Source of the DNA: Branchiostoma floridae
Taxonomy: Eukaryota > Chordata > Leptocardii > Amphioxiformes > Branchiostomatidae
NCBI RefSeq assembly: GCF_000003815.2
Contig: NC_049981.1
Span: 29,705,535 to 29,769,534 of the forward strand
Direction: 5' to 3'
Length of the DNA: 64,000 nt
Positions 10,314 through 55,915 of the stretch are shown here, in pieces. Numbering within the stretch: the stretch's first letter is position 1; the number at the start of each line of letters is the position of its first letter. The notes under the pieces were generated by a model. The model worked only from the letters and a program-made list of their open reading frames with translations, did no database searches and had not been told where the DNA came from. The translations under genes were made by a program, and so were the position numbers.

Positions 10314-10860
10314 TGGCTGTGAGTCAACGTAGAATGACTACGCTGGGAACAAGATGTTTCACCTTTGACCCCGCTCTCGTTTCCAGGTGAGCTACAGGAG
10401 TGACACCGGCCCCGTATATTATGATAAGACTGGTTTGAATGAATTATTGGATGGATGAAAAAATTAAGTTTTGATACTTCCGTAGGACTTTTAAAAAATG
10501 CTACCAACATTACCATAAGAAGGAAATGCTCATCTCTGTAGACAGACATAAAGTAACGGAGACACTCTGCGGACTTCTTATGAACTCCAATAACGTTAAC
10601 GTTGCAGGGTAACATTTTTCTTTTGCCTAGACAAAAGAGCCATCACCCAACTGCCTAGGAGTTTGTTTTCAATACGCAATATAGACTATGATCAGCTTGA
10701 TATACTAAAGGGACCAGACTGATTCATGGTCTTCATAGGCCAGCTCCGGGGCAGACATACCCTCGAAGTAAATTCTAGCACCCTACTCTGTAACTGTTAG
10801 GTGTCCATGTCCCTTGTTCAGAATACCACAATGGCACTGCTTCCTTATTTCTGGTGCTTA

Positions 10861-11545
10861 ATGGCATATCAACAACACTGGTGACCCTGTCCCTGGTGCA
10901 AAATGACACCAATAAGACTGGTGCCCCTGTCCCTGGTGCTGAATGATACACCAACAAAACTGGTGCCCCTGTCCCTGAATCTCACACCAACAAGACTGGT
11001 ACCCCAGTCCCTGGTGCTGAATGACACACCAACAAAACTGGTGTTTCTGCCCCTGGTGCTGAATAACACACCAACAAAACTGGTGCCCCTGTCTCTGGTG
11101 CTGAATGACACACCAACAAGACTGGTGTCCCTGTCCCTGGTGCTGAATCTCACACCAACAAGACTGGTGCCCCTGTCCCTGGTGCTGAATGACACACCAA
11201 CAAAACTGGTGTTTCTGTCCCTGGTGCTGGATGACACACCAACAAAACTGGTGTTTCTGTCCCTGGTGCTGAATGACACACCAACAAAACTGGTGCCTCT
11301 GTCTCTGGTGCTGAATGACACACCAACAAAACTGGTGCCCCTGTCTCTGGTGCTGAATGACACACCAACAAAACTGGTGTCCCTGTCCCTGGTGCTGAAT
11401 CTCACACTTACAAGACTGGTACCCCTGTCCCTAGTGCTGAATGACACACCAACAAAACTGGTGTTTCTGTCCCTGGTGCTGAATGACACACCAACAAAAC
11501 TGGTGTCCCTGTCCCTGGTGCTGAATGACACACCAACAAGATTTG
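10861..11545. repeat. 42-bp minisatellite, about 16 units
   Basis: Units of the type CTGGTGCCCCTGTCCCTGGT plus GCTGAATGACACACCAACAA repeat head to tail with point changes. Because 42 is a multiple of three and the unit lacks stop codons in some frames, both strands stay open for more than 200 codons. On the plus strand this gives a 14-residue repeat with VPLSLVLNDTPTK, on the minus strand one with SFSTRDRGTSFVGV. I see no start context, signal peptide or splice sites that argue for translation. Confidence 0.9.
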
Positions 11546-12685: not shown

Positions 12686-13609
12686 TACTCTCCAAGCAGA
12701 GGTTAGGCTTTGGGTGGTTTTTTGGGTTTTTTTTGTTGTTTTTGTGGGGTTTTTGCTGTTGTGGTTTTTGTGGTTGGTGTTGGGGTGGTTGGTTTTGGGG
12801 GGGGTTGTGTTGTGTGGTTTGGGTGGGGGTGGTTGTGGGTGGGTGTTTTGTGGGGGGGGGGGTTGGGTGTTGTGGGGTGTGTTGTTGGGTTGTGGGGGTG
12901 GTGTTGTGGGTTGGTTGTGGTGGTTGGTGGTGTTGGTGTGGTGGGTTGTGTGGGGGGTTGGTTGGGTTTTTGTGTTTTGTGTGGTGGTGTGGGGTGTGTG
13001 GTGGTGTGGGGGGGGTTGGTGGTCGGGTGCTTGTGGTGTGGTTTGTTTGGTGGTGGGTTGGTTGGGTTGTGTTGTGGTGTGTGGGTGTGTGGTTTTGGTG
13101 TGGTGGTGTGGGGGTTTTTTGGGTTGGTTGGTGTGGGGTGGGGGGTGTTGGTGTTGGGTTTTGTTGTGGGGTGGGGGTTTTGGGGGTGTTGTTGTGGGTG
13201 TGGTTGGTTTGGTGTCTGGGGGGGGGGGTGTTTTGTTTGTGGGGGTGGTGGGGGGGTGGGGGTGGGGGGTTGTGGGGTTGGGTGGGGTGGGTGGGGGGTG
13301 TGGGTTTGGTGTGGTTGGTGGGTGGGGGGGGGTGGTGGAGGGGTTTTTTGGGGTGGGTGGGTTGTGTGGGGTTTTGGGGGGTTTTTTTTTGTGGGTGGGG
13401 GGTTTGGGGGGTTTTGGGGGGGGTTGTGGGTGGGGGGTTGGGGTGGGGGGTGTGTGGGGGTGTTGGGGGGGGTGGTGTGTGGTGGTGGGGGGGTTGTTGG
13501 GTTTGGGGGGGTGGGTATGGAAGATGTGAACGACAAAGGAGGCCGCGCGACGCACCCGGCACCCAAAACGTTGAAAACCAGCCAAAGCCTAACCTCTGCT
13601 TGGAGAATA
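12686..13609. mobile_element. Mutator-like TIR element filled with a G/T-only tract
   Basis: The ends are TACTCTCCAAGCAGAGGTTA and its inverse (CTAACCTCTGCTTGGAGAATA), followed inward by GGCTTTGG and its inverse. A perfect 9-bp direct repeat, GAGATACCC, flanks it at 12677-12685 and 13610-13618. TSDs of 9 bp are typical of Mutator-like elements. From about 12712 to 13516 the plus strand is almost only G and T, with one or two A and a handful of C. All three stop codons need an A, so plus frames are open by composition, and the complementary A/C strand is open too. The long overlapping ORFs here are therefore not genes. No transposase is present. Confidence 0.85.
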
Positions 13610-23470: not shown

Positions 23471-23537
23471 CAGATCACTTTCTTCTTCTTTTTTGTAATA
23501 AAATATGGTCTTCTTTTATTTCAGATCAACGACAGGA

Positions 23538-24044
23538 ATGACTGGCCCACTGGCGTTCTCCCTCCTGGTGGCTCTGTCCTGTTCGGTACTGGTCAACTCG
23601 GCAACGCTGCCCGCCTACCGCCCCGACCTCTACCACACAGCAGCAGGAGACCCCGCCGTGGACTGGAGACAACTGTGGCGGGAGCTCCTGCAGTCCGGTA
23701 TCGTGCCCGACAGGACGGCGTCGACCCGGCACTACGACAGGCGGGCGCCCCTGGGTCTCCCCGGGAAGAGAGCCGAGCCGACGATGCGACCGTATGAGGG
23801 TGACGACGACGACCTGGCGATGATGGAGAGGTCCAACAGAAGAAGAGTTCCGCTGTTCGGCTTCCCCGGGAAGAGGATGTCTTCTTGGAACGTCCTGGAA
23901 AAGAAGGCACCGTTCGCTCTTCCGGGAAAGAGGGGTGGGGAGGAGACGCAGAACGTCGACCTTGTTCCAGAGGCGTGGGTTTTCCCGGACAAGCCCACCC
24001 TATCCAGAAGAGCCCCTTCTCTGGCACTACCTGGCAAACGGTAG
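23538..24044 (+). CDS. Neuropeptide precursor with four Pro-amide peptides, family not recognised
   Basis: A single exon encodes 168 residues. The start ATG lies 13 bases after a 3' splice site (TTTTATTTCAG ends at 23524), so a 5' UTR exon exists upstream. Residues 1-21 form a signal peptide (MTGPLAFSLLVALSCSVLVN). Four segments between dibasic sites end in Gly-Lys-Arg, the signal for cleavage and C-terminal amidation: APLGLP (70-75), VPLFGFP (104-110), APFALP (124-129) and APSLALP (159-165). They follow RR, RRR, KK and RR. The consensus is (A/V)P plus two to four residues plus (L/F)P-amide. The spacers are acidic (EGDDDD) or unrelated, and the last peptide abuts the stop codon. There are no cysteine-bridged peptides. 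Amidated proline ends are also known from TRH and calcitonin, but those have different lengths and motifs. The reading as a secreted peptide precursor is strong; receptor and role are unknown. Confidence 0.88.
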   Translation: MTGPLAFSLLVALSCSVLVNSATLPAYRPDLYHTAAGDPAVDWRQLWRELLQSGIVPDRTASTRHYDRRAPLGLPGKRAEPTMRPYEGDDDDLAMMERSNRRRVPLFGFPGKRMSSWNVLEKKAPFALPGKRGGEETQNVDLVPEAWVFPDKPTLSRRAPSLALPGKR

Positions 24045-24445: not shown

Positions 24446-24451
24446 AATAAA
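24446..24451 (+). other. AATAAA polyadenylation signal of the neuropeptide gene
   Basis: It is the first plus-strand AATAAA after the stop codon, about 400 bp downstream, followed by a T/G-rich stretch (TTTCGTTTTTTGTATCG). Those are the normal parts of an animal poly(A) site. Confidence 0.5.
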
Positions 24452-26290: not shown

Positions 26291-26368
26291 CTAGGGTTAG
26301 GGTCAGGGTTAGGGGTAGAGTTAGGGTTAAGGTTAGGGTTTGGGTTGGGGTTGGGGTAGGGGTAGGGT
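26291..26368 (+). repeat. Interstitial telomere-like (TTAGGG) array
   Basis: About 13 units of TTAGGG and close variants (TCAGGG, TTGGGG, TAGGGG) occur in a row. The array is bounded by GTAGATTTGA (26279-26288) and its exact inverse TCAAATCTAC (26368-26377). A ~205-codon open frame runs over it but is a by-product of the repeat. Confidence 0.85.
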
Positions 26369-31396: not shown

Positions 31397-33980
31397 TGAT
31401 GATGATGATGATTGGTTTATTTATTTCAAAATCGAGGATACCTGGCAGCCAAAGGCTGAATTGCGTATCTTCTTACAGGAATCACAAAAACAATCATTTA
31501 ACATTATACATTATACATCTCAAAAACAAACACTTCGGATTGAACTTACAGTACTAAATGCGGAGGAAACGAGTAAACTACTGTAACAGTTTTAAAATTC
31601 TGTCGTTACAGATAAAATTGATTAAAAATATATCTCTGCTATCTGTCAACTAGATATAGCTATAGACGTCATTTCCTGATAGCAAAAGTATCGTATCACA
31701 CAAAATAGAGAAATACATTGCTCTTGAAGCCGTAGTAATTACTTTCCATCATCGTTGAGAAGTCGAACCAAGTAGGGTATAGGGGAGTCCCTGTATCTAT
31801 TTGTTCTACATTTAACCGCTCTGAGTTTGTTAGAGTTTCTGGTGTTTCGTCCATGGAGCTGACCTGTCTTCTGTGGGAGCATGTCTGGGCCCAGTTTCTT
31901 TGCGAATTTTCTGCACAAGTCCTCGCGTCTTTGTTGCAGAGTGTGAAGGCCGGTGCGCTCCAGTGCCGCTTCATAGGACGTGTACTGTCCACCCAAGATG
32001 GTACGGAGAGCTCTCTTCTGAATTCTTTCCAACCGTGCAGTGTGTTCCTTGGTGAGTCCGGAATGCCATACAGGCACGCAGTATTCTACCACGGGTCTGA
32101 CATAGGATATGAATACTTGGAGCAAATCATTCACCGTAACATTGAACCTTTTCAGACTTCTAAGCATGAAGAGTCTTCCGTTAGCTTTGGAGATCATTTT
32201 TGATACATGCGTATCCCATTTTAAGTTTGACTGTAACCATATTCCCAAAAGACACGAGACTACCACGATCTCCAGCGGGGTGCCATTGATTTTGAGAACT
32301 GGAGGGGCAGGCGGAAGCTTCATGAAAGAGAAAATCATAACCTTGCACTTGTCTGCATTCAACAGCATGTGGTTTTGACTGGCCCACTGATTAAAGCCAT
32401 TGAGCTCTTCCTGCATGATAGATGGCGCATCATGTTGTCGCGTCTCTGCCAACGACAGGTCGTCAACAAATTTCCACTCACTGAGGGGAGACTCTCTAAC
32501 AGCGTCATCAAACACAGCCAGGAATATGAGGGGCCCAAGAAGTGTTCCCTGTGGTACTGAACAGGACAGCGTCTGCCACATAGAGAGCTCGTTTCGATAC
32601 CTGACGCGTTGACGGCGGTTGAGCAGGAAGTTAGCTATCCAAGGTATCAGACATGGTCGTGCACCGAGCTGTAGCAATTTGGAAATAGCAATGTTGTGGT
32701 CGATCCGATCGAATGCCTTTGAAAAGTCCGTCATAACAAGTGTAGTGATGTTGCCCAGTCTATCAGAGTTTCTCGCCACGTAGTCAGTCAAACTAACCAT
32801 GTAGTGTGCAGTTGACTTTCCCTTGAGACAGCCATACTGTTGTGGATCAAGTGAGGTTCTGATGTCTTGTAGCAGCCACTTGCTCACGAAAGATTCAGAG
32901 ACCTTGGCTAATTGTGACGTCAGGGAAACTGGTCGCAGTTTACTGATGCAGGGAGGTTGGCACTTGGGGAGGGGCACAACTATGGCATCCTTCCACTGCT
33001 GAGGTACGTATCCCTGTTTAAACGATGTATTTAAAATGTCAGCAACTGGTTGGCTGAATTCATAGGCGAATTCTTTTAACACTCTCGTGCTCAACTGATC
33101 AGGGCCCGGCGCTTTCCCAACTTTAAGCTTTTGCAGAATAGGGCACACATCCCAGGGGTGCACCTCTGGCGGTGGGGCCTCGCACGGCAGGTAAGCCGGG
33201 AGCTGTGCTGGGTCAAGACTGGGGCGTCCTTGTGCCACTGTTGCAAATTGATCATTTATGCAGTTGGCGATGAAAAGGCTGTCCGCTGACTCGTTATCCG
33301 GAATGCTGACAGAAAGTTCTTTGTGCTGCATGTTTAGTAGACCTCGGATTTCCCTGTACCAGCTGGCCGGGTTCTCCTTTTGTAGTTTTTCAATCCGGTC
33401 GCTGTAATAAGACCTCCGTGCCTTTTTCACCTCGCGGTTTACTTTGTTTCTGAGATACTTCCAAAGTAGAGCTTTACCTTCTTTAAAGGCTTTCTGTCTT
33501 CTGAGGATGAGGGCTTTCACCTCTGGATTGATCCATGGCTTGTCTGTAGCGTGCATTTTAATCTGGCGGGTGGGGAAAAACTGTTCAATAGCTTTTCCAA
33601 TTGTTTCGTAGAAGATGGCTGATTTGATCTCACATGAGGGTTCCTCGTACAGCTCTCGCCACTGATACGAACAAAGCCACTGTCCAAAGGCGCGGATATT
33701 TGAGTCTCGCATGGGGCGCACTGTTTTTGTTTTAGTTTCATGGTGTACGTGGTGTGACTTGGGTTTCCACAGAACCATGTTATGGTCACTGAGGCCGAGA
33801 GGACTAGTGATTTCTGGTATGTCATAGTATGACTGGAGGTCTGTTATAATAACATCAAGAATAACTTGTCCTCTGGTGGGCATTTCGACCACTTGAGTCA
33901 GTCCGTTTCCGCTGCAGATGTCCTTTGTGTCGAGTCTATTGAAGTCGCCCAATAGAACTATCCCTGCTTCTGGGTTTCGC
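31397..33980 (-). mobile_element. 5'-truncated non-LTR retrotransposon
   Basis: It runs from the endonuclease end of its reading frame, at the left-arm junction near 33980, to a short (ATC)n tail at 31397-31412. A microsatellite tail rather than poly(A) is typical of CR1/L2-type elements. About 340 bp of 3' untranslated sequence follow the stop codon. It is inserted in a Mutator-like MITE. Confidence 0.8.
31739..33979 (-). CDS. Endonuclease/reverse transcriptase ORF2, N-terminally truncated
   Basis: An open frame of about 745 codons begins at the truncation point, just after an in-frame stop in the flanking DNA, and has no frameshift. Counting from a TTG at 33952, it opens with the end of an APE-type endonuclease (GDFN at 2-5, then GLSDHNMV at 53-60). 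Reverse transcriptase blocks follow: GKAPGPDQLS (279-288), LRPVSLTSQLAKVSESFVSK (339-358), DFSKAFDRIDH (409-419), SVPQGTLLGP (465-474) and the catalytic KFVDD (494-498), which has FV where many elements have YA. A C-terminal thumb-like region ends at LLNDDGK. The native start and most of the endonuclease are missing, so it cannot be autonomous. The lack of stops points to recent insertion. The clade (CR1/L2-like) is inferred from motifs. Confidence 0.88.
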   Translation of the reverse strand, partial: RNPEAGIVLLGDFNRLDTKDICSGNGLTQVVEMPTRGQVILDVIITDLQSYYDIPEITSPLGLSDHNMVLWKPKSHHVHHETKTKTVRPMRDSNIRAFGQWLCSYQWRELYEEPSCEIKSAIFYETIGKAIEQFFPTRQIKMHATDKPWINPEVKALILRRQKAFKEGKALLWKYLRNKVNREVKKARRSYYSDRIEKLQKENPASWYREIRGLLNMQHKELSVSIPDNESADSLFIANCINDQFATVAQGRPSLDPAQLPAYLPCEAPPPEVHPWDVCPILQKLKVGKAPGPDQLSTRVLKEFAYEFSQPVADILNTSFKQGYVPQQWKDAIVVPLPKCQPPCISKLRPVSLTSQLAKVSESFVSKWLLQDIRTSLDPQQYGCLKGKSTAHYMVSLTDYVARNSDRLGNITTLVMTDFSKAFDRIDHNIAISKLLQLGARPCLIPWIANFLLNRRQRVRYRNELSMWQTLSCSVPQGTLLGPLIFLAVFDDAVRESPLSEWKFVDDLSLAETRQHDAPSIMQEELNGFNQWASQNHMLLNADKCKVMIFSFMKLPPAPPVLKINGTPLEIVVVSCLLGIWLQSNLKWDTHVSKMISKANGRLFMLRSLKRFNVTVNDLLQVFISYVRPVVEYCVPVWHSGLTKEHTARLERIQKRALRTILGGQYTSYEAALERTGLHTLQQRREDLCRKFAKKLGPDMLPQKTGQLHGRNTRNSNKLRAVKCRTNRYRDSPIPYLVRLLNDDGK

Positions 33981-40999: not shown

Positions 41000-43850
41000 C
41001 CATCGTCCCGGACGGAATGTGTCCGAGTTACTCAAGCTTTATTTCCTTGCGATGCGACATGTGAAGTACACGTAGTTTCGTCAACAAGACACATACACGA
41101 TTTACATGGCAGTGAGTCAGCAGACATATTGATAGCACATTGTTTATCGGTACAAATTGACTGTATAAAGCTATTTTTCAATCTACCATCTTCTACCATC
41201 TATATATAGGCCCAATCTAGACACAGTTTTCCCCGACATCTAGACACAAGAACAGTACGTAGTATGTGTGCACTTTTAGTAGCATGGTATTACCAGCCAA
41301 CCATGTCAGTAGTCTATCTTGCGGATAAAACATATTAGCCTACTTGATACACGCAAGTTGTGTTACACCGTGATACGCGAAAATGGACAACATACACACT
41401 CTTTCCGAAATTGCTTCGATCTATTAAATAAATGTCATGCCAAACAGAAAGTACACAAAACGAGGTTCGGACTTTTTTAAGGTGAAAATTTTACGGTGAA
41501 AGCACACAGGGCGTAGTCTATACCAGACCCCTGCCTGGGCGAATAGTAATGGGGTACTTTGAATGAAAGCCTAGTAGGAGTTAATTGGTCTAGGAGTGAA
41601 CTAGCTGGATAGACTGCAAAAGACTGACTGAAATCCCATGGCAACTTATTTGTCCCTATTTGGCAAACTTCGAAATTCTTCTCTATTTTTTCGTCCAGCT
41701 GACTCGTCTGCCTGGAGACTTCACATGACACACGTGCGCGCCGTTGTTGAATGTCGGGCACAAAGACCAGATTGCTCGCGCTCGCAAAATCGCGTCCCGC
41801 CCTTTCCCCTGTTTTGCTCACGTGGTTTTGCTACCCCTTGTGACCTCAGTTGTTCACTGTCTACGACTCAGACACTTTCTCCATACCCTCACGTATCAGG
41901 AGAACAGTTTTAACATACATTCTATGGTCACCTACTGCCGCGAAGTTTAACAAATGTCGTCGCATTCCCTCGCTGTTAGTTCACGACAACAATGGCGCTA
42001 GCGTCCTCCCCAACATGTACGTATTGTTCTCGCTCACCTTGGTTTTATTTTCGAAAATATGCAACAGTCGACACTACGTCAACGTGCAAAAACTATTCCG
42101 AACCAAACGCTTATATGCCATGCCCAAATATGGCACAGATTTGTGTTCATATTCTGTTTACATCGATACATGAGAACTATAAATGAAAAACGAAGAGGGG
42201 AACCGCGGCCATGACGCTATTTACCTAGTACCTCAGTCAACGGTTGTTGTTGTTGTTGTAAAGAAAAGCTCAAAGTGTTGAACGTTCACCAAACTGTACA
42301 ACCTTAGCTTTCTTACTCCATTTTAGAATCCCTAACCCCACCAACAGCATCCACAACATCTAAATCATGCAGCACTTCGATTTCTACAGTCTACTGCGTA
42401 CATTTTGGGCTACAAGGCCTGCTTTTCACGTAACGATTTTTGTGTGGTGGTAACATGTAGACGTTATGCCCTGGCTTGTTTTTGACGTCTGTTTAGGAGC
42501 TTTTGTCGGAATTCTGTTTCGTCCAATTCTCCTCTTGCCCACCAGCCAAACAAAATAAAACCTGACGAAATAGAAACCCCTGCAAAACCGCATAGAAGAT
42601 GTTAAAAACAAGTCGGAGTTTGGTTTAGTTTGGAGCTCAGGAAAGTCGCCAACATGGCGTCATATTTTTCACGGCCACGTTGTCGGCCATGACGTGTCCC
42701 GAATTGCGGCACCACCAGAAATCGTTTTCCTGTGAACTAAGACATCATATCACCGGTCCCGACGTCCGTAAACATTTTTTTAACACGTACGAAGCTGTCG
42801 ATTTTTTTTAAAGATTCTATAATGTCTTTTGCCCGTCCAGTCGCCGAACTGACCTAGTAAGCGTGGTGTCGGACGCGACGCTGGTGTCTGTTGTAGTGTG
42901 TAAGGGAAAGAATAGCGTTTTACTCCAAATGTTTCAAAATCTGTAAGTTCCATCTGTTTCATTTTCACATTCGGCGGATTGGTCTATGTTTTGCTGGCTT
43001 GTGTGGCTGTTTGCTTATGTTTTATTCCCGATAATTTGGACTGAAGTCTACTTTTTTGATCCCCCAAATTATTTTTGGTCCAGTACACTGAGGTGTGTGT
43101 GTGTGTCGGGTAGCTAGTATGGCGCGCGCCATAATCCAAACCTGCATATCGCGACAGTTTTGCTTAGTTGTGTACAAAATGCTTCATATTGACCACTTTT
43201 AGTTTTGGAATTGTCTAGTATGCCGAACATGATATTTGTTATACCAATAATTATCTTGGACACTGTGGCGCGACCGCTTGCCGTTTTTCTTTGCCATTCC
43301 ACATGTTTTTATGTGTGTATCGCGATCGACCACTCAGGGGATGTGAGGGAAATGGTCACACTAGACAGTTGGCCACTATAGACAGGATTCCTGATGCTGT
43401 GAGAATCATCTTAGAATCACTAAACAGCGACCAAAATAAACTGTGGCGTTGACGCGGTCTTTATGCAGAGGTAGCACCAGCACAGGTTCGACTCTACTGA
43501 CTCACGTCACCTGAGTCATACCTACGGTAGAGTCAAGTTTCGCCCACCCAAAATGTCAAATTGGTAGCAACACCTAGAAACTGAAAATCATTAGATTCCA
43601 GGGAATGTCGTAATGTAATCTTCCTACAACATGTGAACACAACAATTCTTTGTTTTTTACTTCTTTCTTTCCAACTAACGAAAATATCTTTTGGTATTTC
43701 TTAGTCGCACGCGCGTACGAGAGACTGTTTTTATTTTGCTGCAGTCGGAATAGACAACATTTGCTTCTGGACTCACTCATATTACAGGCGATGTCAAGCA
43801 TGTGGGATATGCTGAACACCGTTTCTTTCCTTCCCAGGCAATTTTGTGAT
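41000..43850. other. Spacer upstream of the IRF gene
   Basis: A copy of the CTACCAGACCCC repeat lies at 41510-41725 and a (TTG)n run at about 42241-42258. I see no supported gene. A 5' untranslated IRF exon and promoter probably lie in this stretch but could not be placed. Confidence 0.4.
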
Positions 43851-43853
43851 CCG

Positions 43854-46800
43854 ATGACGGTTTTTGACGACGCCGTGCCGAGCCCGGCCCACCCAGCCGA
43901 CATGTCCGCACAGGAAGAACAAGACGAGGGGCAGAAGTTGCGGATGCGGCCCTGGTTAGAACAGCAGCTCGACAGGGAAGAGTATCACGGCTTCTGCTGG
44001 CTGGACAAGAAGGAAAGAAAATTCAAGGTATCTACATCAATCTGGATTTTGTTTATCGTTATTTTTTCTGAAGAAAAAAGTTTTTTCTGTCTATTTTTCA
44101 ACGACGGTACGAACCACTCTTGTACCGAGTATGATTCATTCATGTTGTGATTTTATGGTTATTTTCTTCGCTTTCCTTCATCTGAGAGAATTTTACAACT
44201 CATTTCCCGGTGGCAAATCTTGATGTTGATGTCTTCATACAAGATATTGCTCATTTATACGTGGCTTCGGAAAAAACTACTGAAAAGTGTTGGGTCGGTC
44301 TACAATGTGTAGATGTATAAACTTCTACACATAAATCGTTGTTTCATAGCCGTTGATATGCGCAAATGTTTCGTCTGAACCTATCGAGTGTTCTAGTTTA
44401 GGTGAATACTAAACCCCATTTCCTACCCCAAATGTTTGTTCCCAAGTTTTCTGTTTGATTTTTAGGTTTAAAACGTATGGTAACGATTGCTGCACTCATT
44501 GACTTGTTGTTCACCGCAAATCATCAATATTTCGACCCTGCGTATATCAACACTGTAGCGTGCATAGACCCTCCCATTCTCTCAGCCACAACGTATGAAC
44601 CGAAGTTTATATCCTCAAGATTTTCAGTCTATATACTTTTCAGATATTATGCTATTAGCTACACGGTACCATAGTCACAGATTTTTCTTCTAAAGATGCA
44701 GAAACGTACCCGAATTCGGCGCGATCGTTGTTTTTTGTCGGAGTTATCGTCCGGACTTACGCCAGCGCAAAAACGTCAACTACATCATGCCATTGCGTTA
44801 CACGTACTGTTTAAAAATGCACATTGATCTTGAAATAAAATAATGCATCATCATTCTATAAAGAATATTAATTTTTTTCGTTGGAATGGGGTGGGTAGAT
44901 TGGCATTTCTTTCACCGTGTTCGACAGAAGTTGAAATATATTCCCAAGGACGTTATACAACGTTCTTGATCAAATGAAGACGAAAACGGCGACATATATA
45001 CATTCTCCCGTCTTTGTTTCAACCTCACCGTGAAAAATACTGCAGCAAGCACCACTTTCAGTTAGTCTCTACCAGACTCCCAACTGACCGAATAGAAATA
45101 GAGGACTATGGCCCAGTTAGGAATGAAATCTAAAAGTCTAATAGGAGTTAATTGGCCTAGAAGTGTTGGCCGGCCTGACGAAATATCTCCTCCGGCCGGC
45201 CGACTCCCCTCTTGACTCTGTTTGTCCAATTTCTACAATTAGACCACCGATCTGTGGAACCTGGTAGAGACTGACTTTCAGTAGTTGTTTATGTCGATGT
45301 GTTGATAGGAATATTAGTGGAATTATGAACATTCTAACACCTGTAACGTTGTGTGTTCTATGCACCTGTAGGTACCCTGGATCCATGCCTCCAGTCAGCA
45401 CTTTAACCACATGAAACACTCAGCAGTCTTCAAGGCTTGGGCCGTCCATACAGGTAAATATTTTCATTCATTTCTTTACCAATCTTGTAGGGTAGTAGTC
45501 CCTTCAATAAAAAAAATGATTTCCAAGGGAGCAAAGCAGCAAGGGAGTAAAGGTAGATTTTTCTTTTACCTCCCCGACCGAAGTCAGGTACCCATTTTTT
45601 ACACCTGGGTGAAGTGAGGAAGGTCGACGTCGTGTAAAATGTCTTTCCCAAGGGCACAACGTCGGGGACACGGCGAGTATCGAACTCGGCACATCTAGAC
45701 TCCGAGCCGAACGCTCTACCAGTTACGATGCACACGACGAAACGAACGTTTCTATATAGTTCACATACGTTATGTCGTCTGAAGACTATCATATAAGAAA
45801 TTTGTTTTGTCATGTTTCAAGAAGAGGGCAGAGACCCTGTAGTTTTGGATAGAATGTAACGTTGTTTTTTTCAACACTTCTACCTAAAGTGCATTTAGCC
45901 CATGTTGGGCATTGATATGCAATAAAGATCATTGTCATTATATTTTCTTCCCTTCTCACAGGCCGGTTCGACCCTGATAAATCCGACGAGTCCTACGAGA
46001 AGGTGAGCCTGTGGAAGACGTGGAAGGCGAACTTCCGCTGCGCGCTGAACTCCCTGCCTGACGTGGTGGAACTGAGGGGAGAGAACTGCAAGGCGAAGGG
46101 AGAGGCGGCCTACAAGGTGTACAGGATCGTCGACAGGAAACCCAAGCGCAGGAAGTCCAGAGGTAGGTAATCTTCGTGAGGGAAGTTACATTTTACGCCA
46201 AATGCTTCTTGAAACAAGACCTCTACTTACAGCAGGTGCACAGAGCCTTGACATACATGTACCTCTCTTAGCTCATCTAACCATTGTGTAACTATCTTTT
46301 TGTATATACCACTTGCTTGTTGAATGTATTGAAATAAAAGATTTTGAAAACGAAATCCAGAGGTAGGGTAAAGGCTTCCACCAGGCCTTCTTACGGGGGT
46401 ACGAGGATCGTAGAATTCGGGAAAAAAATCGGAAAATTTGCCTGGGTAGTCAGTCCACGCTTTATAATAGGTTCGTGTTTCCCCTCCGGAGCTCCTCGAG
46501 TAGCAAAAATCCCCTACTCGCAAATTTTTCTCCATATAATAACCAGCGTAGTCAGTCTGATAGAGGCTAGGGAAAAATGTGCTGTGTTAAACTGCCTCTC
46601 GCTGTGTCAGGGGTGCATTATCATAGGGCTAGTATCCAAGCAGATGTTCGGGAGACCAACTAAATCATTGATTTTTTTTTTTTTCATTTAGCCAAGCTGA
46701 AAAGCTAATTATAAGAATTCTGTAGCATTAACGTATTATGTACACTTATTATGTGCTTAGGATTTTGTATACTCCAAAAGACTTGCATTATTTCAAATTC

Positions 46801-48685
46801 CTTTGATCTTTCATGGCAATGCATCTGAAATATCTACTAGACAAGGCAGTTGTTGGCGGAAAACTTGGATAAAGAAATTAGATTAATTTGCTTGAAAGGT
46901 TTACTAAGAATCGCCGAAAGTTGCATGCAAGGATGCCATTTTATAGAGTGAATGAAGACCTTACATATATATTATATATACATTAACCATAGCCACTGCC
47001 TTCCAAGAAGAAGTCAAATCCAATAATAATAAATGCACCTTCAGTTTATTAGACATTAGTGTTATGTATTCTTTCGTTTTCTCCTGAGAATTGATGTTCG
47101 TGCAATTAGCCTTCGGGCATGATTTTGCACATAAATGACCGATGTATACTACTGGGTTAAGTACAGGTCACAACAAAAGGATTGATAGTTGGCAGATACA
47201 TGAAATGTATAATTTATAACCGCTATGCTGCTTTTGCCCTGGTAGGCGCCCAGTCTCGGACATCACAGTACATTTGTATACAACTGTTTTCCCCCTTTCC
47301 ACTAGGACGGCGCTCCTAGAATAATTGTGTAGAAAAGAAACGAATATTTGTACACTTTGTGTGTTTTTTTGTCTTTTCGGTCACGCTTTTACGTGTCGTA
47401 TGATATACCCAGTGACAGTGTAAAAGGGAAGGTTACACATATCCTATTTAGGTCGCAGTGAGAGGGCAGTGCGATCGCCGTCTAGTGGAAAGGGGGCCTA
47501 AGTACAGGTCGTGATGTTCAAAAGACTAGTTGACAGATACATGAAATAAATGATTTATAACCGCTATGTCGCCTTTACCCTACCAGGCGCCCAGTCTCGC
47601 CCATCGCAGCCGGCCGTGCACCACAAGACCGGGCGGGTCGAGAAGAGGAGATCAGCTCCCGTAAAAGTGGGTAGTTTTTCCCGCATGTGATTCTGAACAG
47701 TAAACACTTTGTTAAGTTTGTTTGTTTGTTTATCTAGATATCCATTAGAATGTACAAATTGCATGTAAATTCTATTCTTCATGAGTCCATATAAAAATCA
47801 AATACATAACATACAATACAAGTGTGAATCAAGAATAACATGAAGAAAAAAACATCGAAGTAAACTGAGATCTGTTAAGGGAAGCCGGCGTTGTTGTATT
47901 TTCTACTCCAACGGTATTTACGTTTTTGAAATATCATCGAAGAAAATCTTGTGATAGAATCGAATTATTCTTGCACCTTGAAATATTTTTTTTCATTAAC
48001 TGAAGTACGATAGAACTTCCGAAATGACAACATAGACTTCAAGATTCCAACATATATCTACTTGGTCATTCAAAATGACGAATGTGAATGAGTATTTCTT
48101 GCATCTTTCGTCGGTATTAAAATGAGAACTTTTGGGTGTGTACATAAGGATCTTTCTTCTTGCTATAATGAATTCTTGTTTTGAATACAATATCATGTTT
48201 GCAAATTTGACACGCACGATTGTAGGAATATATGTTTAACTAATAGTAAGGTTACTCTCCAAGCAGAGGTTAGGCTCCGGCTGTTTTTTGACGTTTTTTT
48301 CGGCGTTTTTATCGAGCTTTCTATTTTGCGGCCGCATCAAGTCGACATCAACAAAATAGTACGAAATAGAAAGCCCGATAAAAAACAAGCCTAAAAAACA
48401 AAAACAAAAAAACAAAAACAAAAAAACACCCGGAGCCTAGCCTCTGCTTGGAGAGTAAGTAAGGCAACTCTTAGCTTTTCTGTGCTTCTGACAACTTTAA
48501 TCGTATAAGGACTAGTCAGCGGCGCTGACCGCCCTGTCTTGATACTTCGCCTTTCCCTTAAAACAACATTGCACAAGTGGATAACATAGAGAACACTCAA
48601 CAAAACATGGGAGGGGCCAAAGAAATACCCTGTTCAAAGTGCAAATGTATTCTTCCACCTTGTAAAGACCGTGTTAATATATAGT

Positions 48686-48760
<75 letters not shown>

Positions 48761-51700
48761 AAGAGTGCGCATACGCGAAAACGAGAGAACGAGAGGCTGG
48801 AAGAGATCATAAGTGATTGAATAACAGCTATCATTATCATACCAGAATACCTATATGGCCTCCTTCGGTCAATATTGACCATGGTAGATATCAGTCGTAC
48901 AGCGTCGGCTGTGGCTAAAGAGTCCTATACGAGAATGACAGTCTCTGCCACACAGGGCACATCTGTAGGCTGACTCAGGTCTGTTGCAAAGTTCCTTTCT
49001 CAAGATGATCCGCTTTTTTTTCTGCCATGCGCATCAGTCTGATTTTAGCTGCCTGGACAGTGTGTCAAATTCCGTAAACAACAAAGTCAAACGGCCACAG
49101 TCTGTATACAAAAAAAATGCTTCATGATCAAAACAGAGCCTTGCTTAAAAAAAAAAAAACATTTCACCAGGCCACTAAACTCTGAGGTCGAGGGGACAAA
49201 GTCAAATTGACTTAGAAACCACGTGATGATTTTTTCCAGGAACAAGAACGTGCAATATAGGTACGGGCCTTCTCAGTAGCCCCTGCCACTCTCCAAGCAG
49301 AGGTTAGGCTCGGTCTGTTTTGGACATATATCGACAGGCATCAACACCACACTAATATAAACTCTCCTGCGCAGATATTGCCGATTCCTAAAAGTTTTGG
49401 AGAGTTCCTACCTGGACTTAACTAGATCTGATGTTTGGATGGTTCAATGATATGGTAGAGAGTCAAAGACTGTCCTTTAAAGGATCCTTGGAAAGTGGGA
49501 GTACCTGTAACAGTACTTGTTGACTTGAAGTAGATTGGTTTGAATGATTGGTCCTAACCAATAAAAGGATTTATGTTATTTAAGTCAATACGGTTTTATA
49601 CAATCTGTATGTACCAGTTATCGTAACTTAACTCGGGTTTGGTCAACTTTAGTTTGTAAGTTAGTTTGGTTTTGCAGAATTTTATGCATGACGTTTGTTC
49701 GGGGTTTACCCCTTGACCAAGGAACATTAAAAAAACGCCGTCGGGCGATATGTGTTTTTTACCCTCGTAAAATAACAATAAACAAACAAACAGACAAAAC
49801 TGGCGGTCACTTCGGAGGATGGCACTCAGACTTTTAGATGATTATGACGCCATTTACGTGGGATAGGTGTGTGGTTACAGATACGCGTCGCCTGGTACGG
49901 CCAGGAAGTCCTGTCTAGATTTCTTGCTTTAACAAGAAAAACTCACCGCACTTGTGCCACACCTTCTCAAGTAAAGTAAAATATCTGATTTACTTCCTTG
50001 TCTGCTTCCTTTTCCTTAAAGAACTTGAATACCCGACCACCGCACCCACCTAACTGTAAACATATTCATACCAGTGCCGTCACCAAGCGTGACGGCAGGT
50101 TGACACCTTTAAACATTTACTCTTCATTGAGGGATTGGAGATACTTGCGCATTATGCCATGTTGCAAGCCCCATCCAAGTTTGCGCAATGCCAGGTAATA
50201 TTTAGCTCTTGCAAGCCCCGCTCAAGTTTGCGCAATAGCAGGTATTGTTTAGCTGTTGCAAACCCCGTCCAAGTTTGCGCAATAGCAGGTAATGTTAACT
50301 TGTTGCAAGCCCTGCTGAACCTTGCGCAATGCCATGCTGATGTAAATCCTGAAGAGATCTGCGCAATATACCAAGTACAATAAGCCCATGGCTTTATTGT
50401 AAGCCCTCAGCTTTACTAAACCATGCAAATCCGTAGACGACTTCAACGATACTGTCGCTTTGTAAATCCGTCCCTTTCTTACTCAAGTTTTCCTTCAAAG
50501 GCAGTCGAGAAATTCATGCACACACGAAAATGCAGGGAAATATTTCATTTCTACGCACAAACGCGCTTCTATGTACTTTGAGGGCTTACGCTCGGTCAGT
50601 GACCTTTGACATCCAAACCTTGCACCTGTATATAAGTATAGAGTGTGGTTTAGGGTTCTGAACAAGGGAGGCTAGGAACGTTAAATAGAAGTCCCGTGTT
50701 TGAGGAGAGCCACACCTCGAGCATGTTAAAGAACCCACCACACTTATCGAAAAGAGTAGTGGTTCTACACATCTTGGTGTGAATGGGTCAAATCTGTTCA
50801 ATACAAACCTGGTGTGTTAACTACGTCATGAGGCGCTTTACTGGGCATGCAATACATAAAACATACAATACATACGTACAAATCATATCATACAACAAGG
50901 TCTCATCAAGACCTACCCACGTACCAAATACAAAGGCATTCTGGAGTTATACTAGTCAACTACTAAGGCCCCCTTTCCACTAGACGGCGATCGTGCTGCG
51001 CTCTCACTGCGACCTAAATAGGATATGTGTAATCTTTACTTTCACACTTGGTATATCATACAAAATGTAAAAGTGTGACTGAGAAGACAACAAAGCACAC
51101 AAGGTGTAAAAAGATTCGTTTCTTTTCTATAGAATTCGTTGAGCGATATGTCAAATTTTAGGTCGCAGAGAGAGCGCGGTGAGAGCGCCGTCCTAGTGGA
51201 AATGGGGTATTAGATACAAACACACGAACGCTACGGAAAACATAACCTTCTAGCGGAAGTAAAAATTCAATCCTCGTCTTTTATTACAGAACTGCCGACA
51301 GCACAGAGGGAAGCAGTTGGCTGCTCTCGAGAGGCAGACCCGTGAAGAAGCGCCATCTTTCGGAACCACCGACCAGTGCAAGTCGGAGAAATTACCTTCC
51401 GACCACGCGAACTACACCAAGTCAGATGGCGGTGAGTTGTTAAAAGCGCTTCGCTCACCAGAAAACTAAGAGTGGAACACTTATCCATTATAATAATAAC
51501 TTTAATAATTTTATTGCAAGATCACGCCCGAGTGCTTATTCCAAAGTAAAGACAGTGGTATACAGAACATGGACATCTACTTTAAATCTATGTCTTTTTA
51601 ATCTATATGAGGGGTTTGACTTCTTTTTCGTATGCAATTTGAGATGAATTGTCCAACATTTTCGAAAGTCCTCCTAGTTGAACGACTTAAGCAAGAAGAT

Positions 51701-54700
51701 TGTTTTTATACTGTTAAACCATCAAAGTGAATCACAAAGTATACAAGTGGAACAGACAATGAACCTAGTCTATGAAAAGATTCTGAATCTACGTTACCAA
51801 TGCGTTATAATTAGAAACTACAAAGATAGCACTTTACAGGGTATATGATGATCGAACTGCGACTTTTCCAATGACTCGCCGAAAATTTAGGAACAAAATA
51901 TGATTCATTATTTATTTGGATTCGTCATCTTCAGATACAAGGAAGTATATTTTGGTATAGATACTTACAACGGAAACAAAACTGTAGATGATTCAATCTT
52001 TCACATCTAGAAAACTTCCTAAAACAACACATTTCCACTAAAATCACAAAACCCACTGATCATTAAAAAGATTCCTTAGCCAGTGCCTCAAAAAAAAAAA
52101 ACACGTCAATCTCCCAGTAGTGTGCGTAAAATAATCAAATAGATCATTTTACCATTTTTATACTGTGCTGCATCGATGTGTACACTTTCAAGTAGCCTTC
52201 GGGCATTAGTTTGCAAATAAAGATTATTTAATAATTATGATATCCACGGGGCTTGTTGCAGAACTACCATTACCCGTTAAAGACCAAGGTTACTATAAAA
52301 CCACCCCATACATTCAGCTCACGTAAACTACCAGCCCTCAGTCTGGTCCCAACCACCATGGTGCTCACATCAGTGGTAGCAGGCTAAGACAGTTTAGCAA
52401 GTATTGGAGTTTCTCTCCAAAACAGTTTTGAAATGTACATAAGACAATTGTCATGAACAGATATAAGGAAGAACACATGCATGGTTACACATAAAGACTA
52501 TTCAACTTAGCTTCACAAGTCAGCTTACAAAGAAAGTATGAAGCATTTCTCTCCATGCTCTGATTGAAGGTGTGTCTTATTTCCCCGACAATCAATGAAA
52601 TACGGTTCTTGTCCCGTTTCAGCAGCCGAAGGTTTACTGCCCTTCCCTCCCAGCGCGCCGGAAGCCTGCCACCGTTCCCCCGGCCCTGGACAGCTCACGT
52701 GTCCCACCATCCCATCCAGCGCGCCCGATGCCTGTCACCATTCCCCCGGACAGCTCACCTGTCCCACCTTCAGCCCGCTAACCCGCATCAAGACAGAGTC
52801 TTCAAGTGACGACGGTACGGTACCGTTCAGAGCTTCAAAGTTCATTATTAGCCAGGCTTTACGCTTGCCGTAGTCTGTTTCTCTCTAACACTAAAGCTTC
52901 GTTAGTGTTAATAGAAATGTGTGTAAATGTGCAGAAGAATTGTCCTTCAGCTTCGCATGATCATGATGATAATAACATAGTGGAGGTGACTGATATTGAG
53001 TACAGTCGTCAGCCTACAAAGCAACCAAGAACGGACACTATCTGATTGTAACTCACAAGGCTCTCTAATATTATTTGATGTACTGACTTCACTTACGTTA
53101 TGTTCTTCACAGGACTGAGCGACAGTGATAGCAACAGTGACATCAGCGACAATGCGCCTACAGACGAAGAAGTAGTTGAGGTAAAGACAAAAACACTTTC
53201 TTTGCTTTGCTTAATCTCCACGCATGTCTTTCCTTCGTCTGTTTTGCACATGTCTTGAATGTGAAAAAGAAAAAAGTTAAGAGTAGTCCCATAAACTTTT
53301 TGAGGCCGTAGGGGTGTCGTTATCCACTGTGTCTAGGGCACGGTATTTGTGAGGCAGAGGTCATCCCTCTCCTTCAAATGCCTTTTACCTCCCCAACCGA
53401 AGTCAGATACCCATTTTTGCCCCCGAGGAAAGTCGTGTTAAGTGCCTTTCCGAAGGACAAAGCCTCTAGCCAGGTATCAGACCAAGGAGCTTCGCAAACT
53501 TGTGTTCGCTAGCCTACCCACTATGCCATTTGACGCCACGATTACAAAGAATCTGTCAGATGTAGAACTCGTCTTTAGACCAGAATTCGAACTACGCAAA
53601 TGAAAGTACATCTGAAAACGAAAGTGGATCTGAAATGGACTAAGTATGAAGCGGCCAGAAACTCGCTAGCCGGTACGAAACAAGCACAGGAGGTCCAGTT
53701 CTGGGAACGATACCGTTGCCATGGCGAACCTCCATCCCAGAAGGGTCGTTCCCAGAGCATTGTTCGTTTCACAGGAACGAAACTTGGCGATTGTTCACGT
53801 TCTGGGAAAAAGGTTTCGAACCTCGGCCATGTGGGATAAACACTCTAGTCGTCCAGGGCTTCCAAGAAGGCCAAGGGAAGGGGGACAAAACAAACCGGTC
53901 GTTAATAATAGCTTGTTTGAATCAGACGTTTGGTTGACCCAAACGATATTTCAATAGCGAGTGCAAAGAAATGTGCCCCACCCACACCTAAAGCACTCTG
54001 TTCAAATCGCATGCCATTTATTGCATGTATTATGAAGCCTTCGTGTATTTTGTCTACTTTTTCGTAATGTTTTTTTCTTTTTCTTTTTTCTTTTGTATTG
54101 TTGGGTTGCGTTCAGCTTTATTTGGTCCACTTTCTGGCATATGGAGTTGTATATTCAAGTGTGTTTTATTTTGGTCATATATTGTCAGATGCGTCTTTTG
54201 AGGGAACCACAACTAAGTTGTCTTCTATAATACATATCAGTACTCTATATCTATCGTTTTCTTTTTCCGTTTTTAACATGGTTTGGTTGCTACTTTCTGG
54301 TGTTGTATGTATCGTTATAAAAGTTTGTTTTGCATTTTCAGATGCTGTCATTCTAATACATGTAACGTTATATCAGTACTCTGTAATTACGTTTTTTCCC
54401 CACAGGACGTACTGGGACTTGAAGAAACCCACAGCAACAGGGGCAACAGTCCCGCCCGGGACGGCACAGATCTCGAAGACACGTCCTTTCCTCCTAACTC
54501 CGGCTTCCTCAGTCATTGGACCCCTAGCGGAAACATCGCGAACAACGGCTGGCTGGGATCGACTCCGCCCGAGCAGGCCTTCCAAAACACCGCGGTGTCT
54601 TGTGCGTCGTCCTCGGCCAACGTCGCTACCAACCCCGCCGTCGTTGTCCAGCCTGCCCGCTCGCTCGATCCCCTGACTCCGATCAACACCGACAGCTTGC

Positions 54701-55501
54701 TGACAACTTTGGGGATGGACGAATCCTCCATGAAGGAAATCATGAACATCCTGCTCAAAGCAAAGACGACACCTACCGGGCAGGCGGGGTACTCCACAGC
54801 GCTGACCACCACTGCCAGGTTGAGCGTACAACAGTCTGTGAGTTTTGGAGGAGTGCCCAACACGGTCCATATGAGCAACGCCCCAACAACAGGGCCCGCA
54901 CCCATGCAGACTTCAACCGCCTCTACGGTCCAAGCCCCACTGCCCAACTATTTCCACACCCAAGGTAAGAACGTGCTACTTATGATCAACCGTTTTTCTA
55001 GTTAGTAGCTGGACTTGGAAGTTGTATTGAATTGTCTTTCCACATTGATGAACTTTTTTTCTGAATCAAGTAAGTTTGGAATATCAAATTTGGATGATCG
55101 TACGTCCTTCGTTTCTGCATCAAGTTTAAAGTGTTATTCATCAACCAGGACGTTATATCTCATATAAAGACCTTGATATCAATAGAATGCCTGTGTGATT
55201 TTCTTTGCTATGGTATGAAATTCATTAAGAAGTGGAAACACACATGTATTATCAACCAAACTTGACATTTCAAACTTTTGCCATCTCTAATATGTAATCT
55301 TTCTCATTCTGAATCTAAACACTTCATATTTCAAAGGAAGTAATTCAAAATTGTTTTTTTACAGGTGTCTCGAGTACAATGAACCCCTTCAACGGTGTGG
55401 TTCCCGTAACGTCGGCCCCCACCCAGCCACAGTCACTTCTACACAGCCTTGTGCAGGGAGGTCCCACCAATATCATCACATCTACAACTGTTAGCGGGTG
55501 A
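43854..55501 (+). CDS. IRF: Interferon regulatory factor, IRF1/2-like
   Basis: IRFs are winged-helix transcription factors that bind GAAA repeats and control innate-immune genes in vertebrates. The coding exons are 43854-44027, 45372-45453, 45962-46162, 47587-47666, 51290-51431, 52623-52814, 53113-53180, 54406-54964 and 55365-55501. All have AG/GT borders and join in frame to 544 residues. The DNA-binding domain (about 29-145) has the five-tryptophan pattern: Trp34 (RMRPWLEQQ), Trp49 (FCWLDKK), Trp61 (VPWIHASS), Trp81 (FKAWAVHTG) and Trp106 (TWKANFRCALNSLPD). A basic stretch KPKRRKSRG follows it. Residues after 180 are low in complexity, rich in Ser, Pro and Thr, and contain IKTESSSDD, a possible SUMO and phosphorylation site. 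I see no IRF-association domain of the IRF3-9 kind, so an IRF1/2-like type is likeliest. The start is uncertain: ATGs at 43791 and 43902 are in the same frame, and an acceptor-like CCTTCCCAG at 43830-43838 favours 43854. Confidence 0.93.
45062..45270. repeat. CTCTACCAGACTCC repeat, copy 3, in IRF intron 1
   Basis: The left part repeats 34420-34530. The right end, CGATCTGTGGAACCTGGTAG, is the inverse end of the CTACCAGGCTCC family at 38535-38670. The stretch between holds GGCCGGCC palindromes. Confidence 0.6.
45545..45730 (-). repeat. tRNA-derived SINE, minus orientation, in IRF intron 2
   Basis: On the minus strand GAGTTCGATACTCG is the B-box-like word and is followed by GTGTAAAAAATGGGTACCTG and GACTTCGGTCGGGGAGG. 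Family as at 39920-40170. Confidence 0.65.
46370..46570. repeat. ACTGACTACGCTGG-type element, copy 2
   Basis: Shares GGATCGTAGAATTCGG, GTTTCCCCTCCGG and CCAGCGTAGTCAGTCTG with 37845-38060. It lies in the intron after the third IRF coding exon. Confidence 0.6.
47158..47270 (+). pseudogene. Partial copy of the acceptor side of IRF coding exon 4
   Basis: The intron end and exon start at 47499-47615 are repeated here. Both have TAAGTACAGG, GACAGATACATGAAAT or a close variant, TTTATAACCGCTATG, a pyrimidine-rich acceptor and GGCGCCCAGTCTCG as exon start. After about 20 exon bases this copy diverges (GACATCACAG in place of CCCATCGCAG) and has no matching donor, so it is probably not spliced as an exon. 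Confidence 0.7.
47291..47497. mobile_element. CCCCCTTTCCACTAG MITE, copy 2
   Basis: The ends CCCCCTTTCCACTAGGACGG and CGCCGTCTAGTGGAAAGGGG are inverse. It sits between the partial and the true acceptor of IRF coding exon 4, directly next to the true side. Confidence 0.8.
48253..48457. mobile_element. Mutator-like TIR MITE, ~205 bp
   Basis: The ends TACTCTCCAAGCAGAGGTTA and CTAGCCTCTGCTTGGAGAGTA are inverse, with inner GGCTCCGG and CCGGAGCC. The flanks AGTAAGGT and AGTAAGGC look like a target duplication with one change. The interior has T-rich left and A-rich right parts (CAAAAACAAAAAAAC), unlike the G/T tract of the copy at 12686. It lies in an IRF intron. Confidence 0.8.
48687..48758. repeat. 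(CA)n microsatellite
   Basis: About 36 uninterrupted CA dinucleotides within an IRF intron. It is likely to be length-variable. Confidence 0.95.
49288..49330. repeat. Solitary Mutator-type TIR end
   Basis: CTCTCCAAGCAGAGGTTAGG continues as CTCGGTCTGTTTTGGAC, as at the left end of the copy at 48253. I could not find the matching right end nearby. Similar single ends occur at 34159, 39757 and 46631. Confidence 0.5.
50160..50350 (+). repeat. ~47-bp tandem repeat, four degenerate units
   Basis: TTGCAAGCCCCGTCCAAG plus TTTGCGCAATAGCAGGTA repeats about four times with substitutions. The later units decay. It lies in the IRF intron before coding exon 5. Confidence 0.8.
50665..50790 (+). repeat. 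SINE tail fragment
   Basis: Carries AACGTTAAATAGAAGTCCCG, TGAGGAGAGCCACACC and AACCCACCACACTTATCGAA, the 3' part of the SINE at 20560-20880. Confidence 0.6.
50970..51210. mobile_element. CCCCCTTTCCACTAG MITE, copy 3
   Basis: The ends CCCCCTTTCCACTAGACGGC and GCCGTCCTAGTGGAAATGGG are inverse, and the interior matches 30872-31070. It lies about 80 bp upstream of the acceptor of IRF coding exon 5. Confidence 0.8.
53285..53525 (-). repeat. tRNA-derived SINE, minus orientation, in an IRF intron
   Basis: The minus strand shows GAAAGGCACTTAACACGAC, ATGGGTATCTGACTTCGG and TTGGGGAGGTAAAAGGC in family order. The tRNA-like head is poorly kept. Confidence 0.6.
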
Positions 55502-55828: not shown

Positions 55829-55915
55829 ACGGTATTCCGTATATCGCCCTTGGTCCTGGCCCTAACTCCAAGTCAGGCCGCACCTCGGGCGATACGGAAT
55901 ACCCGGTGTTATATT
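55829..55915. mobile_element. TTCCGTATCGCC mini-MITE in the IRF 3' flank
   Basis: ACACGGTATTCCGTATATCG on the left and CGATACGGAATACCCGGTG on the right are near-inverse, over only about 87 bp. A related fragment lies at 18130-18195. It falls in the 3' untranslated region if the IRF transcript ends at 57007 or later. Confidence 0.65.

What the first reader, a model, noticed from the sequence alone, without database searches (positions are those of the whole stretch)
23538..24044. Unassigned neuropeptide precursor giving four (L/F)P-amide peptides
The exon shows a signal peptide and four dibasic-flanked GKR sites that would release APLGLP, VPLFGFP, APFALP and APSLALP, all amidated on proline. 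It is established that Gly before Lys-Arg is the amide donor. The shared (A/V)P...(L/F)P-amide pattern is not one I can place in a known chordate family, since TRH and calcitonin share only the Pro-amide end. This is the strongest candidate for an undescribed signalling system in the window.
Basis: partly seen in the sequence, partly recalled or inferred. Interest (0 to 1): 0.85.

Follow-up and report, generated by a model that had tools for sequence, protein, structure and literature searches.

The report
Unassigned amphioxus amidated neuropeptide precursor
A single small gene in a lancelet genome looks like the precursor of four short, chemically capped signalling peptides ending in Leu-Pro or Phe-Pro that fit no peptide family checked here, which makes it a testable but still unproven new messenger.

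Summary
Window 23538-24044 (+) encodes a 168-residue secreted precursor: signal peptide, spacers and four copies of [AV]P-(x)-[LF]-[GA]-[LF]-P-G-K-R, each after a basic site, the stop directly after the last GKR. None of 400 simulated 64-kb sequences held the full motif. The copies are not recent DNA duplicates: 18 of 24 PGKR codon pairs differ. The genome is almost certainly Branchiostoma floridae: size fits, and contig C5 carries the pQSP-amide TRH precursor published for it. One copy was found. No Pfam match; the peptide strings occur in no paper text held. It is not the TRH gene; tachykinin, allatostatin-A, kisspeptin/SALMFamide and calcitonin signatures are not met. Most likely it is a genuine multi-copy Pro-amide neuropeptide precursor acting on an unidentified class A receptor. 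Expression, peptides and receptor are untested; the 2013 surveys and gene annotation could not be consulted, so 'undescribed' stays open. The boldest reading, a ligand for amphioxus receptors whose ligand was unknown in 2019 (e.g. tachykinin-type), is not excluded but has little direct support.

The parts
23480..23524 (+). Putative 3' splice acceptor: pyrimidine-rich tract ending in TTTATTTCAG; implies an intron just upstream of the start codon
   Evidence: sequence, context printed; inferred, no transcript seen
23538..24044 (+). Complete coding sequence of the precursor, 168 aa, one exon, stop directly after the last GKR
   Evidence: one copy found in own genome
23538..23600 (+). Signal peptide MTGPLAFSLLVALSCSVLVNS (cut after VNS or VNSA)
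   Evidence: hydrophobicity; cleavage site by the (-3,-1) rule (recalled), inferred
23601..23744 (+). N-terminal propeptide ATLPAYRPDLYHTAAGDPAVDWRQLWRELLQSGIVPDRTASTRHYDRR, ends in cleavage site RR
23745..23771 (+). Peptide 1: APLGLP + G (amide donor) + KR
   Evidence: [M+H]+ 566.366 for APLGLP-NH2
23847..23876 (+). Peptide 2: VPLFGFP + G + KR, preceded by RRR
   Evidence: [M+H]+ 775.450
23907..23933 (+). Peptide 3: APFALP + G + KR, preceded by KK
   Evidence: [M+H]+ 614.366
24012..24041 (+). Peptide 4: APSLALP + G + KR, preceded by RR
   Evidence: [M+H]+ 667.414
24446..24451 (+). Possible polyadenylation signal AATAAA about 400 nt after the stop (an ATTAAA also at 24156)
   Evidence: consensus match only

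Best explanation
A real cephalochordate neuropeptide precursor gene, found once in the genome. The signal peptide sends the precursor into the regulated secretory pathway; prohormone convertases cut at RR/RRR/KK and KR; a carboxypeptidase removes KR; the exposed Gly is converted to an amide. This releases APLGLP-NH2, VPLFGFP-NH2, APFALP-NH2 and APSLALP-NH2, four versions of one ligand, [AV]P-(x)-[LF]-[GA]-[LF]-P-NH2, acting on one or more class A GPCRs. The N-terminal X-Pro and C-terminal Pro-amide would resist ordinary exopeptidases. Shown: frame, hydrophobic leader, cleavage and amidation motifs, repetition of the unit, one copy found. Inferred: splicing, expression, processing, receptor, neural role.
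For: Complete frame with Met, hydrophobic leader and stop directly after the last GKR. Four copies with the full basic-flanked motif in one frame, against 0 of 400 simulated windows. PGKR codon pairs between copies: 6 of 24 identical, 18 synonymous; that none is non-synonymous follows from choosing PGKR as the defining motif, so the informative part is that the copies are old at DNA level yet still share the motif and, outside it, the [LF]-[GA]-[LF] core. GC and GC3 rise over the CDS. The architecture fits the general description in PMC4772807 (passages) and resembles the TRH precursor of the same genome.
Against: No transcript, peptide or orthologue in a second amphioxus could be examined: no eukaryotic collection was available beyond the own genome, and scans of viral and prokaryotic contigs found no relative. 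The 5' exon was not found. KK before peptide 3 is a less usual convertase site (recalled). Constraint is inferred from within-gene repeats chosen for sharing PGKR, so it is not an independent test of selection. The leader is not unique by hydrophobicity: 1 other window frame scores higher.
Confidence: 0.83

Rival explanations
1. It is the amphioxus tachykinin-type precursor: the peptides are strongly diverged ligands of the tachykinin-type receptors, [LF]-[GA]-[LF]-P-amide in place of F-x-G-L-M-amide.
For: PMC6880623 (passages) says tachykinin-like receptors exist in B. floridae but precursors had not been identified, possibly because of divergence. PF02202 finds no tachykinin over its cut-off in this genome (the one weak hit, 18.2 bits, E 3.0, has no GKR). 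APLGLP carries GLx-amide.
Against: F-x-G-L-M and F-x-G-x-R: 0 of 4 peptides; GLx-amide 1 of 4. The GLx-amide look-alike misled before: PMC9400282 (passages) reports that the Asterias 'tachykinin-like' peptide ArKP2.2 does not act on two tachykinin-type receptors but on a kisspeptin-type one. The PF02202 model has 11 positions, 17 candidates were scored, and at E<=10 it rings in 4 of 14 control genomes, so the absence of a canonical precursor is not proved.
Confidence: 0.06
2. It is a TRH paralogue or descendant, since TRH also ends in Pro-amide followed by KR.
For: Same PGKR end; both precursors are multi-copy; both from the same genome.
Against: N-terminal Gln in 0 of 4; peptides of 6-7 residues instead of 3; the TRH gene is separate on C5 with 12 Q-x-P-G-K-R copies; BLASTP between the two gives 18.9 bits, E 0.049 for the single pair, with 27 identities of 84 mostly in PGKR stretches; the PF05438 search scored one candidate, which lies at the C5 gene and not here.
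Confidence: 0.06
3. It is a diverged member of the galanin/allatostatin-A or kisspeptin/SALMFamide group; amphioxus has many kisspeptin-type receptors.
For: F-[GA]-L/F-like cores recall the FGL-amide of allatostatin-A (motif in PMC8514136, passages); [quoted passage not shown] floridae.
Against: F[GA][LIV]-amide, SxLxF-amide and RF-amide endings: 0 of 4 each. Pfam reports no family at E<=1.
Confidence: 0.07
4. Real precursor, but already listed as a predicted amphioxus precursor in the 2013 surveys or annotated in RefSeq under a generic or other name.
For: PMC5818035 (passages) cites a survey that found most bilaterian neuropeptide systems in B. floridae; such surveys also list unnamed candidates (recalled).
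Against: None of six strings (the four peptides and two amide names) occurs in the text of any of 5.39 million papers; among the 40 of 46 papers listed for LPGKR, FPGKR, LPamide and similar strings no title describes such a precursor. Figures and supplementary tables were not searchable.
Confidence: 0.4
5. Not a neuropeptide: a secreted non-neural peptide (defence or skin peptide), a decaying pseudogene or a chance frame.
For: No expression data.
Against: The full motif is beyond chance; the frame is intact; peptides are short and uncharged, unlike most cationic antimicrobial peptides (recalled).
Confidence: 0.06

Closest known systems
TRH-type precursor of Branchiostoma floridae (pQSP-NH2; L003 in the own genome)
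   Same: Multi-copy precursor, Pro-Gly-Lys-Arg ends giving Pro-amide, same genome
   Different: Tripeptides with N-terminal Gln in tandem; separate gene on C5; little similarity beyond PGKR
Tachykinin family (FxGLM-amide; FxGxR-amide in protostomes)
   Same: Amidated peptides, several per precursor; one peptide here ends in GLx-amide; amphioxus ligand had not been identified by 2019
   Different: No F at -5, no M or R at -1, Pro-amide end
Allatostatin-A / galanin group
   Same: [LF]-[GA]-[LF] core is reminiscent of FGL-amide
   Different: An additional C-terminal Pro; no FGL-amide end
Cnidarian RPamides (Antho-RPamide)
   Same: Pro-amide end; described as N-terminally protected (reference title seen)
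   Different: Arg before the final Pro; 0 of 4 here
'LFPamide' preprohormone named once for Hydra vulgaris (PMC8638164)
   Same: Name alone would fit an (L/F)P-amide end
   Different: Single mention, no sequence seen in the passages; the same paper treats Hydra-FRamides (LLFRamide), so it may be a misprint (inference)

Membership tests
Neuropeptide precursor (general kind) | N-terminal signal peptide | tested here: met
   hydrophobic leader; no SignalP available
Neuropeptide precursor (general kind) | Repeated peptides bounded by basic cleavage sites with Gly amide donor | tested here: met
   4 of 4 copies
Neuropeptide precursor (general kind) | Expression in neurons or endocrine cells and presence of processed peptides | not testable with these tools
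   no transcriptome or mass spectra
Tachykinin | C-terminal FxGLM-amide (chordates) or FxGxR-amide (protostomes) | tested here: not met
   0 of 4 for each; no Pfam family at E<=1
Tachykinin | Activates tachykinin-type receptors | not testable with these tools
   needs receptor assay
TRH | N-terminal Gln (pyroglutamate) tri- or tetrapeptide | tested here: not met
   0 of 4
TRH | C-terminal Pro-amide (chordate TRH) | tested here: met
   PGKR in 4 of 4
TRH | Being the species' TRH gene | tested here: not met
   TRH gene is at G000:C5
Allatostatin-A / galanin | FGL-amide end (allatostatin-A) | tested here: not met
   0 of 4; galanin itself not tested beyond Pfam
Kisspeptin / SALMFamide | RF-amide, G[LI]F-amide or SxLxF-amide end | tested here: not met
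   0 of 4 each
Calcitonin | N-terminal Cys pair in a peptide of about 30 residues | tested here: not met
   no Cys pair in any of the 4 peptides, 6-7 residues
GnRH, RPamide, APGWamide, bombesin | C-terminal signature PG, RP, APGW, [HF][LM]M | tested here: not met
   0 of 4 each; signatures recalled

The most novel reading that the evidence does not exclude
A chordate neuropeptide family not yet in print, [AV]P-(x)-[LF]-[GA]-[LF]-P-NH2, present in cephalochordates and lost or unrecognised in vertebrates, whose receptor is one of the amphioxus receptors without a known ligand (tachykinin-type being the gap named in the literature I saw).
Probability: 0.3. Interest if true: 0.75.

Novelty: new member of a known kind. 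Interest (0 to 1): 0.52.

Why it matters
Amphioxus branches near the base of the chordates, and a 2019 review states that tachykinin-like receptors are present in B. floridae while their precursor had not been identified (PMC6880623, passages). A well-formed precursor with four related amidated peptides gives four exact masses and four synthetic peptides that can be tried on such receptors, which would show whether vertebrates lost a peptide system or carry it in a form that sequence comparison does not recognise.

Tried and rejected
TRH orthology: rejected. Tachykinin by GLx-amide resemblance: not accepted, because the same argument failed in starfish. Synteny: the neighbours STAMBP-like, IRF-like and DDX21-like were identified, but I had no vertebrate gene map to use them with and draw no conclusion. 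Rfam and tRNA scans of the window: nothing. PDB search of the precursor: one match, E 0.47, to a bacterial enzyme subunit, taken as chance. Viral and prokaryotic contig scans: 3 and 92 stretches matched a pattern, none a relative. Bacterial-type promoter and terminator scan: no more than in shuffles. A structure prediction was not run, since a single unaligned, presumably disordered prohormone would tell little. Batch Pfam scans A1-A3 covered 266 of the 344 frames listed; further selected frames were scanned. Weak hits that I did not place: EAD6 0.00036, DUF4806 0.0018, NOB1 zinc ribbon 0.0011, DUF1106 0.0054, LMBR1 0.0069.

Full report
What is there. Window 23538-24044 on the plus strand reads as one complete frame of 168 codons and a stop. 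It opens with a hydrophobic leader, MTGPLAFSLLVALSCSVLVNS-A, runs through an N-terminal propeptide and spacers, one of them acidic, and holds four copies of a short unit: RR-APLGLP-GKR, RRR-VPLFGFP-GKR, KK-APFALP-GKR and RR-APSLALP-GKR, the stop codon following the last GKR directly.

Is it more than chance. In 400 first-order Markov sequences of the window's composition the full pattern (basic site, [AV]P, short gap, [LF]PG, basic pair) never occurred, while the window has four in one frame and none elsewhere. The looser [LF]PG[KR][KR] is not rare by itself: over all six frames 181 of the 400 had at least one and 2 had four, against 5 in the window. In 20,000 simulated sequences of the exon's own composition two copies of it in one frame occurred twice and more never. 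Between the four copies the PGKR codons differ in 18 of 24 pairwise comparisons, so the copies are not recent DNA duplicates; that all these differences are synonymous follows from using PGKR to define the copies and is not a test of selection. The coding stretch stands out in GC (63.1% against 43.1%; 1 of 1258 windows taken every 50 bases is as high; third positions 74.6%). The leader's best 12-residue hydrophobicity (2.48) is exceeded by one other of 107 ATG-started frames of the window; no signal-peptide predictor was at hand. A pyrimidine tract with AG ends at 23524, 13 bases of exon precede the ATG, and an in-frame stop lies at 23499; an intron just before the start codon is likely but not shown. 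If the transcript were unspliced, an in-frame ATG at 23505 would prefix the leader; that alternative cannot be excluded here.

Where it is. The window lies on contig C3 of a 513,431,437-base assembly. Two papers give the B. floridae assembly as 513.46 Mb, one of them with 474.79 Mb for B. lanceolatum and 426.12 Mb for B. belcheri (passages); the lengths of C3 (34.2 Mb) and C18 (18.6 Mb) lie within the 17.12-35.34 Mb given for B. floridae chromosomes. A search of the same genome with the TRH model found, on C5, a precursor with 11 QSPGKR and one QHPGKR, and PMC4772807 names pQSP-NH2 as the B. floridae TRH (passages). I take the organism to be Branchiostoma floridae; no tool named it. Neighbours are a STAMBP/AMSH-like gene on the minus strand (USP8_dimer 5.9e-07; PDB STAM-binding protein 1.9e-10; a JAB part at 0.00022, just under its Pfam cut-off, that matches AMSH-like protease in the PDB at 8.4e-09), a reverse transcriptase frame (RVT_1 2.7e-22), an IRF-like gene (Pfam IRF in 2 of 75 frames, best 1e-06; PDB IRF 1.4e-04 for the frame at 43614-44147) and a DDX21-like helicase (GUCT 2e-09; PDB nucleolar RNA helicase 2 8.4e-05; Helicase_C 1.6e-05). 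Searched against the whole assembly the precursor found only itself at E<=0.001 and again at E<=10, one candidate being scored each time.

How it most likely works. Signal peptidase removes the leader, convertases cut at the basic sites, a carboxypeptidase trims KR and the Gly becomes an amide, giving APLGLP-NH2, VPLFGFP-NH2, APFALP-NH2 and APSLALP-NH2 with [M+H]+ 566.366, 775.450, 614.366 and 667.414. These steps are the general knowledge of neuropeptide processing applied to motifs seen here; none is shown by experiment. Four versions of one core suggest one receptor or a small receptor group, most likely a class A GPCR (inference). An X-Pro start and a Pro-amide end would make the peptides resistant to ordinary exopeptidases but open to X-Pro dipeptidyl peptidases (recalled).

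Family membership. Pfam gives no family for the precursor at E<=1 and the PDB nothing meaningful. End-signature tests on the four peptides: tachykinin FxGLM and FxGxR 0 of 4; the looser GLx-amide 1 of 4; allatostatin-A 0; TRH N-terminal Gln 0; GnRH, SALMFamide, RFamide, RPamide, APGWamide, calcitonin cysteines, bombesin 0 of 4 each (signatures partly, otherwise recalled). It is not the TRH gene, which lies elsewhere; the single BLASTP comparison of the two proteins gives 18.9 bits, E 0.049, resting mostly on PGKR stretches.

The tachykinin question. PMC6880623 (passages) states that tachykinin-like receptors are present in B. floridae but precursors had not been identified there. A search of this genome with the Pfam tachykinin model scored 17 candidates and found none over the cut-off; its one weak hit (18.2 bits, E 3.0) lacks GKR, and at E<=10 the model also rings in 4 of 14 control genomes. 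The PF05438 search did find the known TRH precursor, which shows that the family search can find a neuropeptide gene in this assembly, although that model is far longer (221 positions) than the tachykinin one (11), so it is only a partial control. The gap is therefore open in what I could see, but nothing ties this precursor to it beyond one GLx-amide end. That kind of resemblance failed in the starfish: PMC9400282 (passages) found the supposed Asterias tachykinin ArKP2.2 inactive on two tachykinin-type receptors and active on a kisspeptin-type one. I keep it as a rival at 0.06.

Is it in print. The four peptide strings and two amide names occur in the text of 0 of 5.39 million papers held. 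LPGKR, FPGKR, LPamide and similar strings occur in 46, of which 40 were listed; judged by title none of the 40 describes such a precursor. A search for Pro-amide names with 'neuropeptide precursor' gave 15 papers, one of which names a Hydra 'LFPamide' once without a sequence in the passages seen. Searches on amphioxus or deuterostome neuropeptides listed 12 of 12, 30 of 35, 25 of 27, 40 of 318, 14 of 14 and 20 of 121 papers; by title none reports this precursor. Of 12 papers I saw passages only; none was read whole. Figures and supplements were not searchable. The 2013 surveys that catalogued amphioxus precursors were not seen, and gene annotation could not be consulted, so whether it has been listed as an unnamed candidate is open; I put that at about 0.4.

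Verdict. A well-formed, unassigned amphioxus Pro-amide neuropeptide precursor, very probably genuine: a new member of a known kind, of moderate interest, with clear experiments that would raise or lower it.

Noticed in passing
L003:925-1731 (G000:C5:29433156): The amphioxus TRH precursor carries 11 copies of QSPGKR and one QHPGKR, i.e. one copy of exactly the vertebrate TRH tripeptide, in one frame that contains a 142-base N run.
   Followed up: partly
26292-26368: Thirteen copies of a TTAGGG-type hexamer (TAGGGT, 80% matches), an interstitial telomere-like array.
   Followed up: no
57800-58018: Tandem duplication of a 108-bp unit (100% matches), i.e. very recent or an assembly effect.
   Followed up: no
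12717-13516: About 800 bp of extreme G/T-rich minisatellite on the plus strand, giving long open frames without likely meaning on both strands.
   Followed up: no
10851-11539: 42-bp minisatellite, about 16.6 copies, open in several frames.
   Followed up: no
31742-33979 (-): A 746-codon open frame with a reverse transcriptase domain (RVT_1 2.7e-22); I take it for a rather young non-LTR element (inference).
   Followed up: no
43614-44147 (+) and perhaps on to 55002 (+): Interferon regulatory factor-like exon (PDB IRF 1.4e-04); downstream Ser/Thr-rich frames at 54277-55002 may be its later exons (inference).
   Followed up: partly
46964-63998: A weak Effector-associated domain 6 match (E 0.00036) in one of 98 scanned frames, not located.
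   Followed up: no
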